Shown piece after piece: positions 1 to 5,461 of a stretch of 5,461 bases of DNA. This stretch comes from Alphaproteobacteria bacterium MarineAlpha10_Bin3 (GTDB lineage Bacteria; Pseudomonadota; Alphaproteobacteria; UBA8366; GCA-2717185): positions 1 to 5,461 of the forward strand of contig PTKA01000129.1 of assembly GCA_002937525.1 (NCBI GenBank), written 5' to 3'. A program made the position numbers and the translations under genes. How positions within the stretch are numbered: position 1 is the stretch's first letter; each line of letters opens with the position of its first letter. The notes under the pieces are model-generated. The model was given only the letters and a program-made list of their open reading frames with translations, was not told where the DNA came from and did not search any database.

Positions 1-536
1 CCAATATAGCGGCCGTCTTCGATGGTCAGGCGCGGCACATCGTCAAGCCCGGCATGGCGCAATGCATCGGCCAGTTTCGTGCCGTCGCGGCCCACCGCCG
101 CCGCTTCGGCCGCCGGATCGAGCGTACCGCACCACGACCGGCTGCCAAGACAGTCCAGGTAATTGCCTTCCTCGTCCTGCCAGGATACAGCGTCTATCGC
201 GAGACCGGCGGTATCGGGGTCTTGCGCGCAGGCGCGCACGATTTCCAGGGCGTAGATGACGCCGAGCGCGCCATCCAGCCAGCCGCCGCGCGGCTGGGTA
301 TCCGAATGCGACCCGATCAGCAACGCCGGCCCCGGATTACGCGACCGGCCCAGCACATTGGCGACGCCGTCCAGGGTCGCGTCCAGCCCGGCTTCCTCGT
401 AGCGCCGCGCCAGCCAGCGGCGCGATTCGATATCGGCGTCGCTCAAGGCCGGGCGGACGACGCCGTTCTCGCACGCACCGAAGCCGCGCAATTCCCGCAG
501 ATCGGCGAGCAGTCTTTGCGCGTCGATTTGCGGCAT
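1..536 (-). CDS. M20-family Zn amidohydrolase / N-carbamoyl-amino-acid hydrolase-like, 3' end missing
   Basis: This is the N-terminal 178 residues of a metallohydrolase of the M20 hydantoinase/carbamoylase branch (N-carbamoyl-L-amino-acid hydrolase, allantoate amidohydrolase, beta-ureidopropionase). Such enzymes cleave C-N bonds of carbamoyl or amide substrates in the cytoplasm with a two-metal centre. Visible motifs are G-S-H-S-D-T at about 75-80 (H77 metal ligand, D79), W-L-D-G-A-L-G at 86-92 (D88, bridging-ligand position) and W-Q-D-E-E-G at 119-124 (E122 general base, E123 ligand), followed by G-S-R at 131-133. The family is usually about 400 residues, so more than half lies beyond the left edge. 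The ATG lies one base after the crotonase TGA (TGAGATG) with no clear Shine-Dalgarno of its own, so translational coupling is likely. It is the last visible gene of the minus-strand operon. The substrate within the family cannot be told from this half. Confidence 0.88.
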   Translation of the reverse strand, partial: MPQIDAQRLLADLRELRGFGACENGVVRPALSDADIESRRWLARRYEEAGLDATLDGVANVLGRSRNPGPALLIGSHSDTQPRGGWLDGALGVIYALEIVRACAQDPDTAGLAIDAVSWQDEEGNYLDCLGSRSWCGTLDPAAEAAAVGRDGTKLADALRHAGLDDVPRLTIEDGRYI

Positions 537-537
537 C

Positions 538-1314
538 TCAGGCGCCGATGAAGTTGGGAACCCGCCGTTCCGACATCGCCTTGATGCCTTCCTGAAAATC
601 GGCGGTTTCGCGTAAGGCGTTTTGTATTTTCAGTTCGTGATCGGTCGCCGCGCGGACCGCGTCGGCCATCCCGCGGCGCATCGTCGCGCGGGTTTCGATG
701 ACGCCAAGCGGCGAGGATTGGGATATTTCACGGGCCAGATCCAGGGCCGCGGCGCGAACCTGATCGCGCGGCACCAGCATATCGGCCAGGCCCATCGCAT
801 GGGCTTCCTCGCCCTTGATGCGGCGGCTGGTATAGAACATCAGGGCTGCGTTGTTTTCGCCGATCACGCGCGGCAAGGTATAGGTCAGCCCGAACCCCGG
901 ATGGAACCCCAGCCGGGTGAAATTGGCGGCAAAGCGGGTCTCCGGGCAGGCGACCCGGAAATCGGGCACCAGCGCCAGGCCCAGCCCGCCACCGACGGCG
1001 GCTCCGTGAATCGCCCCGACGACCGGCTTTTTGGTGCGAAACAGGCGAACGGCTTCGACATAAAGATGATTGGCGCCAAGGTCGCTGGACCGGTTCGGGT
1101 CGCCGAAATTGGCCCCGGCGCAGAACGCCTTGCCCTGCGCCGCCAGAACGATCGCCCGGCAAGCCGGATCGTCGTCCAGCGCTTCGAAGGCGTCGGCAAT
1201 TTGCTGAATTAACGCATAATCGAAGTAATTATACGGCGGCCGCTGGATCTCAACGGTCGCGACAAGATCCGCGACGGTAACTTCGATATCGTCAAACGTA
1301 GCTAATTCAGACAT
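538..1314 (-). CDS. Crotonase-fold protein (enoyl-CoA hydratase/isomerase family)
   Basis: This 258-residue protein has the length and order of a single-domain crotonase, which binds acyl-CoA thioesters and stabilises an enolate in an oxyanion hole. The first oxyanion segment is G-K-A-F-C-A-G-A-N-F (61-70) and the second is G-A-A-V-G-G-G-L-G (104-112). The C-terminal helix region ends E-R-R-V-P-N-F. Aligned by eye to rat mitochondrial hydratase, the two catalytic glutamates (E144, E164) fall at G112 and F132, so classical syn-hydration chemistry is doubtful. An isomerase, hydrolase, lyase or other crotonase reaction is possible. The ATG at 1314 is chosen because GGAAGGA lies just upstream; an in-frame TTG at 1332 lies upstream of that Shine-Dalgarno and is unlikely. 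A long palindrome abuts the Shine-Dalgarno. The downstream M20 gene starts after one base. The CoA substrate is not identifiable. Confidence 0.9.
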   Translation of the reverse strand: MSELATFDDIEVTVADLVATVEIQRPPYNYFDYALIQQIADAFEALDDDPACRAIVLAAQGKAFCAGANFGDPNRSSDLGANHLYVEAVRLFRTKKPVVGAIHGAAVGGGLGLALVPDFRVACPETRFAANFTRLGFHPGFGLTYTLPRVIGENNAALMFYTSRRIKGEEAHAMGLADMLVPRDQVRAAALDLAREISQSSPLGVIETRATMRRGMADAVRAATDHELKIQNALRETADFQEGIKAMSERRVPNFIGA

Positions 1315-1318
1315 GGGG

Positions 1319-1326
1319 TTCCTTCC
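1319..1326 (-). promoter_or_regulatory. Ribosome binding site of the crotonase gene
   Basis: On the minus strand GGAAGGAA precedes ATG 1314 with four C residues between. It decides the start in favour of the 258-residue form over the TTG six codons upstream. The last two bases of a long hairpin arm overlap its 5' end, so the hairpin could affect initiation. Confidence 0.75.
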
Positions 1327-1363
1327 GTTCAAGGGTGTGATGGAAGATTACACCATTGAACGG
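1325..1363. repeat. 39-bp imperfect palindrome / intercistronic hairpin
   Basis: The outer arms CCGTTCAA (1325-1332) and TTGAACGG (1356-1363) are perfect 8-bp complements. Inside them, after one mismatch, GGTGTGAT (1334-1341) faces ATTACACC (1347-1354) with seven of eight positions complementary. The centre is a 5-nt GGAAG loop (1342-1346). It lies in the 70-nt gap between the glutaredoxin-DinB gene and the crotonase gene and abuts the crotonase Shine-Dalgarno. Neither side has a T run, so it is not a standard intrinsic terminator. It could be an mRNA-processing or stability hairpin, a translation-modulating structure, a dispersed palindromic repeat, or an operator for a dimeric regulator. 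Confidence 0.8.
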
Positions 1364-1384: not shown

Positions 1385-2146
1385 TCAGCCTTCGTCCCAG
1401 ATCGTGTCGGTCAGCGGCAGGCCCGCAATATCGCCGGCGGTCAGCGGGCGGTCCGGCGCAACGCCGGCCCGGTCCAGCAACGAGGCGATCTGACGGACAT
1501 GCTGGGCCGAATGCCAGACCGTGCGCTCCATCATCTCATGGCGCGAAGTCGCGCCGAAATAGGTCGGCACGTCGCCGCAAAAATCCTCGCCCGACGCGCC
1601 CTGCCACCAGTTCTGGAACCGGGTTCGCACCGCCTGTCCGAATTCGGCGATATCGGCGCTGGTCTTCAAATCGTCTGGCGGCGGCGCGATCAAGGTCTCA
1701 TAGACCAGCGTTTCGCCGCCTTCCTCCATATCGAGGAATGCCGTCGGTATCTGGAAGACGTGATGCATCAGTACGCGCCACGAACGCGGCCGGTTCGGCA
1801 GCTCATCGCCAAGCCGGTCATCGGGCATCTGGCGAATCAGCCGGATTGCGGTTTCCAGGATGCCGTCATAGCGCGCCGCCAATTCGTCGGGCGGCAGTTC
1901 CGGCGCGGTGTCGTCGGCCAGGCCCAGGAAATCGACGACATCCTTGATGACCTGGGCGAAGACGAATTTATCGCCCTTCGATACGATCGGCACGCTCCGC
2001 GCGCCAAGCTGGCGCAGCTGCGCCATGCCGCCGGCTTCCAGCACATTTATCGAGTCGTATTCGATCCCACGGACCGACAGGTATTCCTTTACCCTAAGAC
2101 AGCTTGTTCAATGAGGCTGCCAGAAGACCTTGATTGCTTCAGTCAT
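1385..2146 (-). CDS. Selenocysteine-containing glutaredoxin-DinB fusion protein (TGA at codon 13)
   Basis: Read with TGA as selenocysteine, this is a 253-residue two-domain protein. Residues 5-76 form a glutaredoxin/thioredoxin-like domain: strand I-K-V-F-W, active site W-Q-P-H-U-T-S-C (U13, C16), then A-R-S-V-P-I-V with the expected cis-proline P53 and a helix ending D-F-L-G-L. Residues 87-253 resemble the DinB/thiol S-transferase four-helix fold, with H-H at 128-129 and W-H-S-A-Q-H (H212, H216) as the probable metal-binding histidines. U13 takes the place of the nucleophilic first cysteine of CxxC. The ATG at 2146 has AGGGAG six bases upstream and lies 16 nt after the PhyH stop, so translation should start before the TGA. 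The remaining 240 codons are open to a TGA stop at 1385, which argues against decay. Starting at the internal GTG (2044) would delete the active site and has no Shine-Dalgarno. Alternatives are a sequencing error or a recent nonsense mutation. The substrate is unknown; a thiol-dependent reductase or transferase role is inferred. Confidence 0.85.
2073..2100 (-). promoter_or_regulatory. Candidate bacterial SECIS hairpin
   Basis: On the minus-strand RNA, GGGUA (2094-2090) can pair with UACCU (2083-2079) as four Watson-Crick pairs plus a terminal G-U. This closes a 6-nt loop AAGGAA (2089-2084). Three weaker outer pairs (2098-2100 with 2075-2073) lie beyond a 3x3 internal loop. The loop begins 18 nt after the UGA, inside the spacing known for bacterial SECIS elements. 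The loop guanines are at positions 3-4, not 1-2. An alternative fold AGG/CCU gives a larger loop starting with G about 15 nt from the UGA. The stem is short, so the element is plausible but not proven. Confidence 0.5.
2108..2110 (-). other. In-frame UGA, predicted selenocysteine codon
   Basis: This TGA is codon 13 of the glutaredoxin-DinB gene, three codons before the resolving cysteine C16. It occupies the place of the first cysteine in a redox CxxC motif, and a single base change separates TGC/TGT from TGA. Substitution of Sec at a catalytic redox cysteine is the classic signature of bacterial selenoproteins. Confidence 0.82.
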
Positions 2147-2152
2147 TTTAAA

Positions 2153-2158
2153 CTCCCT
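2153..2158 (-). promoter_or_regulatory. Ribosome binding site of the glutaredoxin-DinB gene
   Basis: AGGGAG on the minus strand is followed by TTTAAA and then ATG at 2146. It lies just after the PhyH stop codon. It fixes the translation start upstream of the in-frame TGA, which makes selenocysteine read-through the meaningful interpretation. Confidence 0.8.
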
Positions 2159-2162
2159 TCAC

Positions 2163-3071
2163 TCACGTTAGTGCTGCTTGGTCGTGTTGTTCCCGGTCGT
2201 CGAAAAACCGGTTCCCGAGAATGCTCTGATTATCGTAGATCGACCCGACGATGACATCGGGGCGCAAGGGCAGCGGAATACGCACCGGCGGCGCTGCCAT
2301 GCGCGGCTGTAGAATCGGCGCGCCGCGCACGATCTTGTCGTTGAAGCCGTCCAGCCCGCCGGCCAGATCGGCCAGCGGCCAGGCGTCCACCGCCGCATAA
2401 GCCTGCAACAGAAACCGGCGCGGTTTGGCCGAACGATTAGAGGCGGAGCCATGCAACAGCCGCGCGTGATGGATCGTCAGGGTGCCGGCCGGGCCGGTCA
2501 GCGGCACCGCCCGGCTGATTTCGTCTTCGATCAAATCCGGGTCGATTGCGCCGCAGAAATAGCCCCCTTCATGGTGATCGTAGACCGGTCCCTTATGGCT
2601 GCCCGGCGTCACCATCATGGGGCCGTTTTCTGGCGTGCAGTCGTCAAGATAGATGCCGATCGCCAGCACATCGTCGTTGGTGTGGGGGTAGAAGGCCCAG
2701 TCCTGATGCCATTCGACCGATTCGCCGACCCCGGCCGACTTCATGTTGATCTTCGAGTTATGCAGCCGGATACCGGACGCCATCAACGGGTCAAGCAGAT
2801 CCATGATCAACGGTTCGGCGGCAAAAGCGCGGAAAAAATCCGAATGTTCGTGCTGCGACTTGATGCGCCGGACGCGCGGTGCTTCGGGCTTGTGCGCCGG
2901 ATCGACATCCAGCATGGCGGTTCCCGAAGCAATGGTATAGGCGACATCGAGCATCCGCTCGGTTTCCGCGATCACTCCCGCCAGGCGTTTTTGCGGCACC
3001 GCGCCGTGGATGACCAGATACCCGTCGCGATCGTAGCGATCCAATTCCTGGCGGGTCAGCGTCCTGGTCAT
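2163..3071 (-). CDS. PhyH-type Fe(II)/2-oxoglutarate dioxygenase
   Basis: This 302-residue protein belongs to the phytanoyl-CoA dioxygenase (PhyH) family, non-haem iron enzymes that couple 2-oxoglutarate decarboxylation to hydroxylation of small organic substrates. The N-terminus (R-Y-D-R-D-G-Y-L-V) is typical. The iron-binding facial triad is W-H-Q-D-W (H122, D124) and L-L-H-G-S (H207), and R218 eleven residues later is the likely 2-oxoglutarate carboxylate anchor. T-P-G-S-H-K-G (155-161) is another family signature. No signal peptide is seen, so it is cytoplasmic. AGGAGA (3077-3082) lies five bases before ATG 3071. It is the first gene of the minus-strand operon, 16 nt before the selenoprotein gene and divergent from the alpha/beta hydrolase. 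Family substrates range from acyl-CoAs to halogenated and secondary metabolites, so the specific reaction cannot be assigned. Confidence 0.93.
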   Translation of the reverse strand: MTRTLTRQELDRYDRDGYLVIHGAVPQKRLAGVIAETERMLDVAYTIASGTAMLDVDPAHKPEAPRVRRIKSQHEHSDFFRAFAAEPLIMDLLDPLMASGIRLHNSKINMKSAGVGESVEWHQDWAFYPHTNDDVLAIGIYLDDCTPENGPMMVTPGSHKGPVYDHHEGGYFCGAIDPDLIEDEISRAVPLTGPAGTLTIHHARLLHGSASNRSAKPRRFLLQAYAAVDAWPLADLAGGLDGFNDKIVRGAPILQPRMAAPPVRIPLPLRPDVIVGSIYDNQSILGNRFFDDREQHDQAALT

Positions 3072-4027: not shown

Positions 4028-4972
4028 ATGGCTTCGGAAACGATCATGGATAGCGCACCCGCCGCCATCGCGGTGCGGCCGTATTCCTTCCATATCGGCG
4101 CGGAAATCGGCAACGTCGATCTGACCGGTCCGCTTTCGGCGGCGACCATTGCGGAAATCCGCGCGGCGTTCCTGAAGTGGAAAGTGGTGTTCTTTCGCGG
4201 CCAATCGCTCGATCACGACCAGCATCTCGCCTTTGCGCGGCAATTCGGCGATCTGACGGTCGGGCACGCCGTGTTCGGCAATGTCGACGATTACCCGGAA
4301 ATCTATTCGATTTCCAAGCACCGCAAATCGAACCGCTACGAGGGCCCGTCGATGGTGCGGCCCTGGACCGGCTGGCACGCCGATATCACGGCGGCGGTCA
4401 ACCCGCCGGCCGCCTCGATCCTGCGCGGCGTGACGGTCCCGCCCTATGGCGGCGACACGCAATGGACCAACCTTGTCGCCGCCTATAACGGCTTGTCGGA
4501 AACCTTGCGCGGTTTTAACGACGGGCTGCGCCGCATCCACCGCTTCGCCGCCCCGCAAGGCGTGCAGACCACCGGCGAATACGACAAGCTGCTGACCAGC
4601 CGGGGACAAGTCAGCGAACACCCGCTGGTGCGCGTCCATCCCGAAACCGGCGAACGCGCGCTCTATATCAGCCCCTCTTTCCTCAAATCGGTCGTCGGCC
4701 TGCATCCGCGCGAAAGCCAGCAACTGCTCGAACTGCTGTGGGAACACGCGGTGCGGCCGGATTACACCGTGCGGTTCCGCTGGCAGCCGGGCGATATCGC
4801 GTTCTGGGATAACCGCTCGACCTGCCATCTGGCGCCCTCGGACATCTTCCAGAGCGACGCCGACCGCCAGCTCTACCGCGTCACTCTGGTCGGCGATGTA
4901 CCCGTCGGCGTCGATGGCAGGCGTTCCACCATGATCGAAGGCGAGCCGGTGCTCGCCTATTCGGCGGCATAG
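4028..4972 (+). CDS. TauD/TfdA-type Fe(II)/2-oxoglutarate dioxygenase
   Basis: This 314-residue enzyme belongs to the TauD/TfdA family, which hydroxylates small substrates such as sulfonates, aryloxyacids, carnitine precursors or nitriles and often causes their cleavage. The N-terminus has the family pattern (I-G-A-E-I-G-N-V-D-L) and V-V-F-F-R-G-Q at 53-59. The iron ligands are W-H-A-D (H117, D119) and C-H-L-A (H267). Y-G-G-D-T (140-144) is the usual segment near the 2-oxoglutarate, and R280 and R284 in D-R-Q-L-Y-R are the expected co-substrate anchor. ATG 4028 is chosen because AGGAGA lies five bases upstream; the open frame extends back to a GTG at 3950, but that form overlaps the hydrolase stop and has no binding site. 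It is probably co-transcribed with the alpha/beta hydrolase. The substrate is not identifiable. Confidence 0.93.
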   Translation: MASETIMDSAPAAIAVRPYSFHIGAEIGNVDLTGPLSAATIAEIRAAFLKWKVVFFRGQSLDHDQHLAFARQFGDLTVGHAVFGNVDDYPEIYSISKHRKSNRYEGPSMVRPWTGWHADITAAVNPPAASILRGVTVPPYGGDTQWTNLVAAYNGLSETLRGFNDGLRRIHRFAAPQGVQTTGEYDKLLTSRGQVSEHPLVRVHPETGERALYISPSFLKSVVGLHPRESQQLLELLWEHAVRPDYTVRFRWQPGDIAFWDNRSTCHLAPSDIFQSDADRQLYRVTLVGDVPVGVDGRRSTMIEGEPVLAYSAA

Positions 4973-5067: not shown

Positions 5068-5461
5068 ATGGGTAACATGGCAAGCAAATTTTTCGGTGCA
5101 TGGGCGGTTGCCGCGGGCTGTTTTTTGGCGCTGATTTTCGCGGCACAGCCGGGACTGGCGCAGAATCCAGCGGCGCTGGAAACCACCTCGCTGCCACGCG
5201 GCGAAGACCAGAATCCCGAAGCCGCACTGCCGCGCGTGCTTAACGAAGCGGACGCAGCTTTGTACCGGGAAATCTTCACCTTGCAGAAAGCCGGCAAGTG
5301 GCGCGCCGCCGACCAGCGGATCGCCATGCTGCGCGACACGCTGCTGATCGGCCATGTGCTGTTTCAGCGCTACATGCACCCGACCGCCTATCGCTCGAAA
5401 TATACCGAATTGAAGGGCTGGATGGCGCAATACGCCGATCATCCGGGTGCCGCCCGCATCT
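5068..5461 (+). CDS. Soluble lytic murein transglycosylase-like protein, N-terminal part
   Basis: The first 131 residues are visible and the gene runs off the right edge. A Sec-type signal peptide is clear: a short N-region with a lysine (M-A-S-K), a hydrophobic stretch at about 8-26, and a likely cleavage after G-L-A (residue 31). The mature part (A-L-Y-R-E-I-F, K-W-R-A-A-D, L-I-G-H-V-L, H-P-T-A-Y-R-S-K-Y) resembles the alpha-helical N-terminal region of periplasmic Slt-type transglycosylases of alphaproteobacteria, which cleave peptidoglycan to anhydromuropeptides. The catalytic SLT domain would lie downstream, outside the window. The start is ambiguous between ATG 5068 and in-frame ATG 5077; neither has a good Shine-Dalgarno. 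C18 follows A-A-G, but the hydrophobic stretch continues past it, so a lipoprotein is unlikely. It is probably a housekeeping gene separate from the catabolic cluster. Confidence 0.78.
   Translation, partial: MGNMASKFFGAWAVAAGCFLALIFAAQPGLAQNPAALETTSLPRGEDQNPEAALPRVLNEADAALYREIFTLQKAGKWRAADQRIAMLRDTLLIGHVLFQRYMHPTAYRSKYTELKGWMAQYADHPGAARI

What the first reader, a model, noticed from the sequence alone, without database searches (positions are those of the whole stretch)
2108..2110. Unannotated selenoprotein: UGA replaces the first cysteine of a glutaredoxin CxxC
Extending the minus-strand frame upstream of the apparent GTG start (2044) gives a continuous glutaredoxin N-terminus, interrupted only by a TGA exactly where the redox motif needs its nucleophilic cysteine (W-Q-P-H-[TGA]-T-S-C). 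An ATG with a good Shine-Dalgarno (AGGGAG, 6-nt spacer) precedes it, the gap to the upstream gene is only 16 nt, and 240 codons stay open afterwards. TGA serves as a normal stop elsewhere in the window, so a changed genetic code is not the explanation. Sec at a catalytic redox Cys is the established hallmark of bacterial selenoproteins, and Sec-containing glutaredoxin-like proteins are known in principle. This instance and its domain context appear not to be commonly annotated.
Basis: partly seen in the sequence, partly recalled or inferred. Interest (0 to 1): 0.95.

Follow-up and report, generated by a model that had tools for sequence, protein, structure and literature searches.

The report
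Overlooked selenoprotein: glutaredoxin fused to DinB
A bacterial gene whose nearest database entries almost all begin only after an internal UGA "stop" codon reads on across that codon, in dozens of related genomes, as one conserved glutaredoxin-DinB protein, in which the UGA is predicted to insert selenocysteine at the catalytic position, making it a likely new kind of selenium-dependent thiol enzyme.

Summary
Minus-strand ATG 2146 to stop 1385 is one 253-codon frame, an N-terminal glutaredoxin (PF00462) plus a C-terminal DinB_2/STL domain, broken only by TGA 2108-2110 at the first position of CxxC. Of the best 80 of 318 homologous loci in named genomes, 75 have TGA there and 5 TGC/TGT; a 77%-identical relative has Cys. 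All 76 UGA copies examined (window included) carry a hairpin fitting the published bacterial SECIS limits; 0 of 5 Cys copies do, and 11% of synonymous recodings. Degenerate third positions in the hairpin are 97-100% identical, against averages of 37-51% over other stretches of the gene. SelA is in 21 of 23 UGA-form genomes tested and 0 of 5 Cys-form ones. The window's own 64%-complete assembly has tRNA-Sec and a SelA cut by a contig end; SelB and SelD were not found there. A 2026 inventory of 119 selenoprotein families lists no such fusion. Function is inferred: a seleno-glutaredoxin coupled to a metal-dependent thiol-transferase fold. Selenium incorporation itself is not shown.

The parts
2153..2158 (-). 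Shine-Dalgarno-like AGGGAG, 6 nt before the ATG
   Evidence: sequence
1385..2146 (-). Grx-DinB selenoprotein gene: 253 codons plus TGA stop (1385-1387); starts ATG 2144-2146
2108..2110 (-). in-frame UGA, predicted Sec13, first position of UxxC (U-T-S-C)
   Evidence: TGA in 75 of 80 homologous loci, TGC/TGT in 5
1961..2134 (-). glutaredoxin domain, residues 5-62 (PF00462)
2061..2077 (-). SECIS candidate H2: UCGGUCC-GUG-GGAUCGA, 7 bp, loop GUG 37 nt after the UGA
2079..2094 (-). weaker hairpin H1 (GGGUA...UACCU) between UGA and H2; differs in form between relatives
   Evidence: -3.8 kcal/mol
1439..1900 (-). DinB/STL four-helix domain, residues 83-236
1760..1762 (-). His129, first of the candidate metal-binding triad
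   Evidence: invariant in A1 (19 rows) and A3 (43 rows)
1511..1513 (-). His212, candidate metal ligand
   Evidence: invariant
1499..1501 (-). His216, candidate metal ligand
   Evidence: invariant

Best explanation
The minus-strand gene at window 2146-1385 encodes a 253-residue glutaredoxin-DinB protein whose in-frame UGA (2110-2108) is predicted to be read as selenocysteine (Sec13) by SelB, directed by a likely SECIS hairpin 37 nt further down the message. Shown: the frame, the UGA conserved in place of Cys, the hairpin conserved at nucleotide level in UGA forms and absent from the 5 Cys forms, the link with SelA, and the two domains. Inferred: SelB uses the hairpin whose apical loop begins with GU (GUG here, GUU in a sub-group, GUC in the Sec-SelD genes of relatives), perhaps with the intervening hairpin H1 shortening the path from the UGA. 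Inferred for function: the Sec/Cys pair of the N-terminal domain does thiol-disulfide (selenenyl-sulfide) exchange as in Sec-glutaredoxin, while the DinB/STL domain binds a divalent metal through His129/His212/His216, activates a small thiol and transfers it to or from a substrate; the fusion would let one enzyme make and then reduce mixed disulfides or thiol adducts. Step estimates: real selenoprotein 0.96; H2 is the SECIS 0.85; redox-active UxxC 0.85; metal-dependent thiol-transferase coupling 0.45.
For: TGA at the same column in 21 of 21 family-holding genomes among 59 and in 75 of 80 loci. Cys relatives: P0004 at 77% identity, 5 loci, and C(T/S)SC in 120 of the 120 listed hits of a Cys-form query. 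bSECIS-like hairpin in 76 of 76 UGA forms, 0 of 5 Cys forms, 10.7% of synonymous recodings. Third-position identity 1.00/0.99/0.97/0.97 at residues 24-27, against stretch averages of 0.37-0.51 outside residues 14-31. H2 paired in 97.6% of cells, 10 doubly changed cells against a shuffled mean of 1.0; RNAalifold finds the same helix unaided. SelA in 20 of 21 family-holding genomes and 3 of 38 others (Fisher 1e-11), and in 21 of 23 UGA-form against 0 of 5 Cys-form genomes (P 2e-4). tRNA-Sec and SelA in the own assembly. Model pLDDT 95.1; DinB/STL and cGrx1 folds; three invariant His, as in the metal-dependent bacillithiol transferases.
Against: SelB over the cut-off and SelD were not found in the window's own assembly, which is 64% complete. 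Total folding energy after the UGA is no better than for synonymous recodings (mean z -0.01), so the RNA evidence rests on hairpin form and constraint, not stability. Two of the five covariation measures (pairs with a double change; further pair types) are reached by 84 and 91 of 500 shuffles. H2's spacing (37 nt) is the very edge of the published range, and its energy sits at the threshold (-7.5 to -8.3). G053 and two named MAGs (L069, L086) have the UGA form without SelA detected. The SelA association is not phylogenetically independent: within the order, families f1/f2 hold both and f3/f4 neither. No functional data; gene neighbours are not conserved. The usual glutathione-binding signature of glutaredoxins (recalled) is not obvious, so the thiol partner is open.
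Confidence: 0.88

Rival explanations
1. The UGA is an ordinary stop; a short N-terminal peptide and a separate DinB protein starting at an internal codon (GTG 2044) are made, and the upstream glutaredoxin half is decayed.
For: Gene callers start the protein downstream of the UGA in 119 of the 120 listed hits (202-240 aa); TGA also ends this same gene; G003 has a frame break near residue 52 in both of its copies.
Against: The N-terminal glutaredoxin residues W9, P11 and C16 are invariant across 43 sequences down to 41% identity; intact CxxC relatives exist; hairpin and SelA association.
Confidence: 0.02
2. The UGA is read as another amino acid (Trp, as in genetic code 4, or Cys) by suppression or a changed code, not as selenocysteine.
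For: The frame is open under any such reading; some bacteria decode Sec at other codons with unusual tRNA-Sec variants (passage).
Against: TGA stops this gene at 1387-1385; a tRNA-Sec with UCA anticodon is present; in the 80 loci the column is TGA, TGC or TGT, never a Trp codon; bSECIS-like hairpin in UGA forms but not in the 5 Cys forms.
Confidence: 0.02
3. A selenoprotein, but H1 next to the UGA (or the two hairpins together), not H2, is what SelB reads.
For: H1 lies at the more usual distance and is a perfect 7-bp hairpin in the Reyranella group; H2 is at the 37-nt limit.
Against: H1 differs in register and form between relatives, and in the window and Reyranella its loop begins with A, whereas H2's loop GUG is invariant in 59 rows and resembles the GUC loop of Sec-SelD in relatives.
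Confidence: 0.13
4. The selenoprotein is real but the DinB domain is not a thiol transferase; it is a binding or metal-sensing domain and the protein is simply a specialised disulfide reductase.
For: DinB-fold proteins vary in function: ClbS, maleylpyruvate isomerase and OvsA also match the model; the partner thiol is unknown.
Against: The three-His signature is invariant, and eight divergent STL proteins of B. subtilis share metal-dependent thiol-transferase activity.
Confidence: 0.45

Closest known systems
Sec-containing glutaredoxin (PF00462, UxxC; cGrx1, PDB 7c10/7c12)
   Different: cGrx1 is an 84-residue single domain; here about 170 further residues form a DinB/STL domain. That 7c10 is the Cys version of a clostridial selenoprotein is recalled; the entry title says only 'Dithiol cGrx1'
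[quoted passage not shown]
   Same: Four-helix fold; three invariant His, the last two spaced HxxxH, as in BstA His67/160/164
   Different: 'Glutaredoxin' does not occur in PMC5815605, which I saw as passages only; partner thiol unknown here
UXX-star glutaredoxin-like (seleno)proteins (NF041212, NF041114, NF041211, NF047338)
   Same: Glutaredoxin-like with Sec in or near a UxxC/UxxT-type motif
   Different: Window protein scores 22.6 bits against NF041212's cut-off of 66; no DinB domain named in the inventory entries
Cys-form 'glutaredoxin / damage-inducible protein DinB' proteins of Burkholderiales and others
   Same: Same full-length architecture, C(T/S)SC in place of UTSC
   Different: Cys codon; no bSECIS-like hairpin in the 5 Cys loci tested; no SelA in their genomes (0 of 5)
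'Grx-like' selenoproteins of the Global Ocean Sampling set (42 sequences, UxxC; PMC2398784, passages)
   Same: Sec-glutaredoxin-like marine sequences
   Different: Not compared here: fragments of the present family could be among those reads; no DinB domain is mentioned in that paper (0 occurrences)

Membership tests
Bacterial selenoprotein (UGA-Sec) | In-frame UGA inside a conserved coding region, conserved among homologues | tested here: met
   75 of 80 loci and 21 of 21 family-holding genomes have TGA
Bacterial selenoprotein (UGA-Sec) | Cys-containing homologues at the same column | tested here: met
   P0004, 5 loci, 120 of 120 listed hits of a Cys-form query
Bacterial selenoprotein (UGA-Sec) | bSECIS: loop 3-9 nt with G in first two positions, stem 4-16 bp, 16-37 nt from UGA, MFE at most -7.5 (model as given in PMC13188914) | tested here: met
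   Window H2: loop GUG, 7 bp, 37 nt, -7.5 (17-nt core) to -8.3; by loop, stem and spacing 76 of 76 UGA forms and 0 of 5 Cys forms (energy not applied there)
Bacterial selenoprotein (UGA-Sec) | SelA, SelB, SelD and tRNA-Sec in the organism | tested here: inconclusive
   Own 64%-complete assembly: tRNA-Sec and partial SelA found, SelB over cut-off and SelD not found; genus mates G001 and G003 have all four
Bacterial selenoprotein (UGA-Sec) | Selenium in the protein | not testable with these tools
   needs 75Se labelling or mass spectrometry
Sec-containing glutaredoxin (PF00462, UxxC) | Glutaredoxin domain with Sec at the nucleophile position | tested here: met
   PF00462 34.3 bits against cut-off 22.9, U13-T-S-C16; fold match. 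Sec itself predicted
Sec-containing glutaredoxin (PF00462, UxxC) | GSH-dependent disulfide reductase activity | not testable with these tools
   no biochemical data
UXX-star (seleno)protein (NF041212) | score over the NCBIfam cut-off | tested here: not met
   22.6 bits against 66; none of the 13 NCBIfam matches listed for the window protein reaches its cut-off
STL (DinB/YfiT) superfamily | DinB fold and Pfam score | tested here: met
STL (DinB/YfiT) superfamily | three conserved His that may hold a metal | tested here: met
   His129, His212 and His216 invariant in 43 sequences; BstA pattern
STL (DinB/YfiT) superfamily | metal-dependent thiol transferase activity | not testable with these tools
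   no biochemical data
Glutathione S-transferase (GST/DHAR/CLIC) | GST fold over both domains | tested here: inconclusive

The most novel reading that the evidence does not exclude
This is an undescribed selenoenzyme family, a selenium-dependent thiol transferase made of a seleno-glutaredoxin and a metal-dependent DinB/STL domain. It, not formate dehydrogenase, is a main reason why many alphaproteobacteria, Reyranella among them, keep selenocysteine decoding. Within the family the SECIS hairpin has been moved along the coding sequence (GU loop 37 nt from the UGA in most, 23 nt in one sub-group), showing directly how a SECIS can relocate inside one protein family.
Probability: 0.4. Interest if true: 0.8.

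Novelty: new variant of a known kind. Interest (0 to 1): 0.68.

Why it matters
It would add a selenoprotein family with a new domain pairing (glutaredoxin plus DinB/STL thiol transferase), present in cultured species (Reyranella soli, R. aquatilis, Desertibaculum subflavum) and so testable now. 119 of the 120 nearest database entries start after the UGA, and where these carry a name it is hypothetical, DinB or glutaredoxin. [quoted passage not shown] The natural UGA/Cys pairs and the two hairpin positions make SECIS spacing and Sec-to-Cys exchange directly testable.

Tried and rejected
Folding stability after the UGA against dinucleotide shuffles (z 0.03) and against synonymous recoding (mean z -0.01 for 76 Sec forms): no excess stability, so stability is not used as evidence. 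The bSECIS test was written after the hairpins had been seen (minimum stem of 6, loops of 3-7, G followed by G or U), though it stays within the published limits; the synonymous control is the guard.

Rfam on the window: no match at E up to 1. The degenerate loop pattern CGRYCCGTGNGRYYG over 59 genomes occurs 172 times against 179 for its backward control, so it cannot be used to find other selenoprotein genes.

In one search the row for L025 (the second copy in G028) was read on the wrong strand and is meaningless; it was read rightly.

Breadth: in an even sample of 398 genomes of the phylum, 85 have a match, but only the own genome and G196 have a full-length one, both with TGA; the rest match the glutaredoxin part alone, at E 1e-8 or weaker. 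The family is thus sparse across the phylum.

Gene neighbourhood: the window's neighbours (PhyH-like and TauD-like dioxygenases, enoyl-CoA hydratase, amidase/hydantoinase-like) recur near at most 7 of the 80 other loci each. A cruder all-against-all clustering was dominated by what look like shadow frames; the frame-filtered repeat shows an amidase-like gene near 9 loci and a CoA-transferase-like gene near 7 as the widest-spread neighbours (names from reading the sequences; 28 Reyranella-group loci counted as one lineage). Not used for function.

Changed genetic code and pseudogene: rejected as stated under rivals. Sec-FDH as companion: TIGR01591 in 29 genomes gave no over-cut-off match with an in-frame TGA (weaker matches beyond the printed list were not seen); TIGR01553 in 23 SelA-positive genomes found a Sec-FDH only in G056, which lacks this family (E up to 1e-60). 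Other selenoproteins of these genomes were not surveyed beyond SelD and FDH, so 'sole selenoprotein' is not claimed.

Full report
OBSERVATION. The window is contig C34 of an unnamed assembly, 2.30 Mb in 502 contigs, 64% complete. On the minus strand a frame opens at ATG 2146-2144, preceded by AGGGAG with a 6-nt spacer and lying 16 nt after the upstream gene. It meets TGA at 2110-2108 as codon 13 and then stays open for 240 codons to TGA 1387-1385. With the UGA read as a residue, the protein has a glutaredoxin domain (PF00462, residues 5-62, 34.3 bits, cut-off 22.9) and a DinB_2 domain (26.8 bits, cut-off 24.8).

THE UGA IS CONSERVED. In 59 genomes (the own one and its relatives) 22 have a match; one (G057) matches only the glutaredoxin part in a 100-residue frame. 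All 21 others have TGA at this column. In G003 the UGA lies in a piece separated from the rest by a frame break, in both of its copies. In genomes with names, a scan found 318 loci encoding relatives; the best 80 were kept and read: TGA in 75, TGC in 4 (L111, L128, L142, L146), TGT in 1 (L133). One of the two search patterns spelled Cys at this position, so the scan was not tilted towards UGA forms; the 238 more distant loci were not seen. Organisms include Reyranella soli, R. aquatilis, Desertibaculum subflavum, Rhodospirillales URHD0017 and many alpha-, beta- and gammaproteobacterial MAGs. In an even sample of 398 genomes of the phylum only the own genome and G196 have a full-length match, both with TGA, so the family is sparse. 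Of the 120 listed of 1985 database hits, 119 begin after the UGA (202-240 aa); the exception, P0004 (252 aa, 77% identical over the full length), has Cys.

CYS FORMS. A query with a Cys form (L142) gave 1880 hits; all 120 listed have C(T/S)SC: 119 within the first 80 residues and P0158, a longer protein, further in. In a quick tree of 57 UGA and 17 Cys rows (a selection; 23 near-copies among the loci left out) with the UGA column masked, at least 4 changes between Sec and Cys are needed, 2 if only well-supported branches count; P0004 sits beside the window protein inside the UGA group. Sec and Cys have thus been exchanged more than once.

THE SECIS. The published bacterial model is: loop of 3-9 nt with G in its first two positions, stem of 4-16 bp, 16-37 nt from the UGA, MFE at most -7.5 (PMC13188914, passages). 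The window has UCGGUCC-GUG-GGAUCGA: 7 bp, loop 37 nt from the UGA, -7.5 to -8.3 kcal/mol. A hairpin within the loop, stem and spacing limits is present in 76 of 76 UGA forms (68 with the loop at 36-37 nt; 8 with GUU at 23 nt, as in ACGAAAGA-GUU-UCUUUCGU) and in 0 of 5 Cys forms; random synonymous recoding of the same proteins gives one in 10.7% on average, 27% at most. Third positions of four-fold-degenerate codons at residues 24-27 (TCG GTC CGT GGG) are 100, 99, 97 and 97% identical among 76 UGA forms; averages over the other stretches of the gene are 37-51%, single columns reaching about 70%. In 59 distinct sequences the helix pairs in 97.6% of cells, with 10 doubly changed cells against 1.0 in shuffles (0 of 500 reach it); but the number of pairs with a double change (2) and of further pair types (7) is reached by 84 and 91 of 500 shuffles. 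RNAalifold predicts the same helix from the alignment alone. Against this, overall folding energy is no lower than in synonymous recodings. Sec-encoding SelD genes of six relatives carry AGCACC-GUC-GGUGCU, a GU-starting loop 17 nt from the UGA, so a GUN loop on a stem of about 6-8 bp is a coherent signal across two genes. A smaller hairpin H1 between UGA and H2 may shorten the path; that is inference.

MACHINERY. Own assembly: tRNA-Sec with UCA anticodon (67.8 bits) and SelA (353 bits) running off the end of its contig; SelB over cut-off and SelD are missing there. Among the 59: SelA over cut-off in 23; in 20 of the 21 family-holding genomes (not G053, 77% complete) and in 3 of the 38 others. 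Within the order (43 genomes) it is 20 of 20 and 1 of 23. The association is statistically strong but clustered: families f1 and f2 hold both, f3 and f4 neither. Across named genomes SelA is present in 21 of the 23 tested with the UGA form (23 of the 75 were tested) and in 0 of 5 with the Cys form (P 2e-4). Sec-type formate dehydrogenase (TIGR01553) is in 1 of 23 SelA-positive genomes, G056, which lacks this family. SelD has an in-frame UGA in 6 of 24 genomes searched.

WHAT IS KNOWN. Sec-glutaredoxins (PF00462, UxxC) are established. The 2026 inventory of 119 prokaryotic selenoprotein families lists no DinB protein and no glutaredoxin-DinB fusion (PMC13188914: section 7, parts 1 and 2 of 3 read, plus passages; 'DinB' occurs 0 times in it). 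'DinB' also occurs 0 times in PMC9312934 and PMC2398784 (passages); the 42 'Grx-like' marine selenoproteins of the latter were not compared and could include fragments of this family. Searches combining selenoprotein or selenocysteine with DinB terms showed no paper on such a protein, judged from the listings (one search listed 15 of 375). That library holds open-licence papers only. NCBIfam has no model that the window protein passes.

VERDICT. A real, unannotated selenoprotein gene by all comparative tests run here, one of a family of at least dozens; new as an architecture, known in kind. Selenium incorporation and the catalytic cycle remain to be shown at the bench.

Noticed in passing
G003:C8 (L019/L028) and G003:C55 (L026/L029): Both copies of the gene in genome G003 have the UGA but a frame break near residue 52; decay or an assembly error shared by two contigs.
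   Followed up: no
G019:C36 and C28; G028:C11 and C60; G006:C554 and C330: Two copies of the gene in one genome (the second G006 copy is cut by a contig end), all with the UGA; the second copies in G019/G028 are only 41-42% identical to the window protein.
   Followed up: partly
L230-L235 (SelD of G004, G005, G007, G009, G019, G028): SelD in these genomes is itself UGA-encoded with a compact GUC-loop hairpin; others have SelD without UGA inside frames of 755-819 aa, as if fused.
   Followed up: partly
window 3-536 (-), 538-1332 (-), 2163-3071 (-), 4028-4972 (+): Neighbours look like a Zn amidase/hydantoinase-type enzyme, an enoyl-CoA hydratase, a PhyH-like and a TauD-like dioxygenase (names from reading the sequence, no family search run); TauD-like and PhyH-like genes recur near 5 other loci each, enoyl-CoA hydratases near 7.
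   Followed up: partly
window 5068-5460 (+): Start of a protein with what looks like a signal peptide (MASKFFGAWAVAAGCFLALIFAAQPGLAQ), cut by the contig end.
   Followed up: no
A2 columns 15-31, Reyranella group (for example L118): A second perfect 7-bp hairpin GAGACUC-AAA-GAGUUUC lies just before H2; its nucleotides overlap those of the sub-group hairpin with the GUU loop, suggesting how the SECIS could have shifted position.
   Followed up: partly
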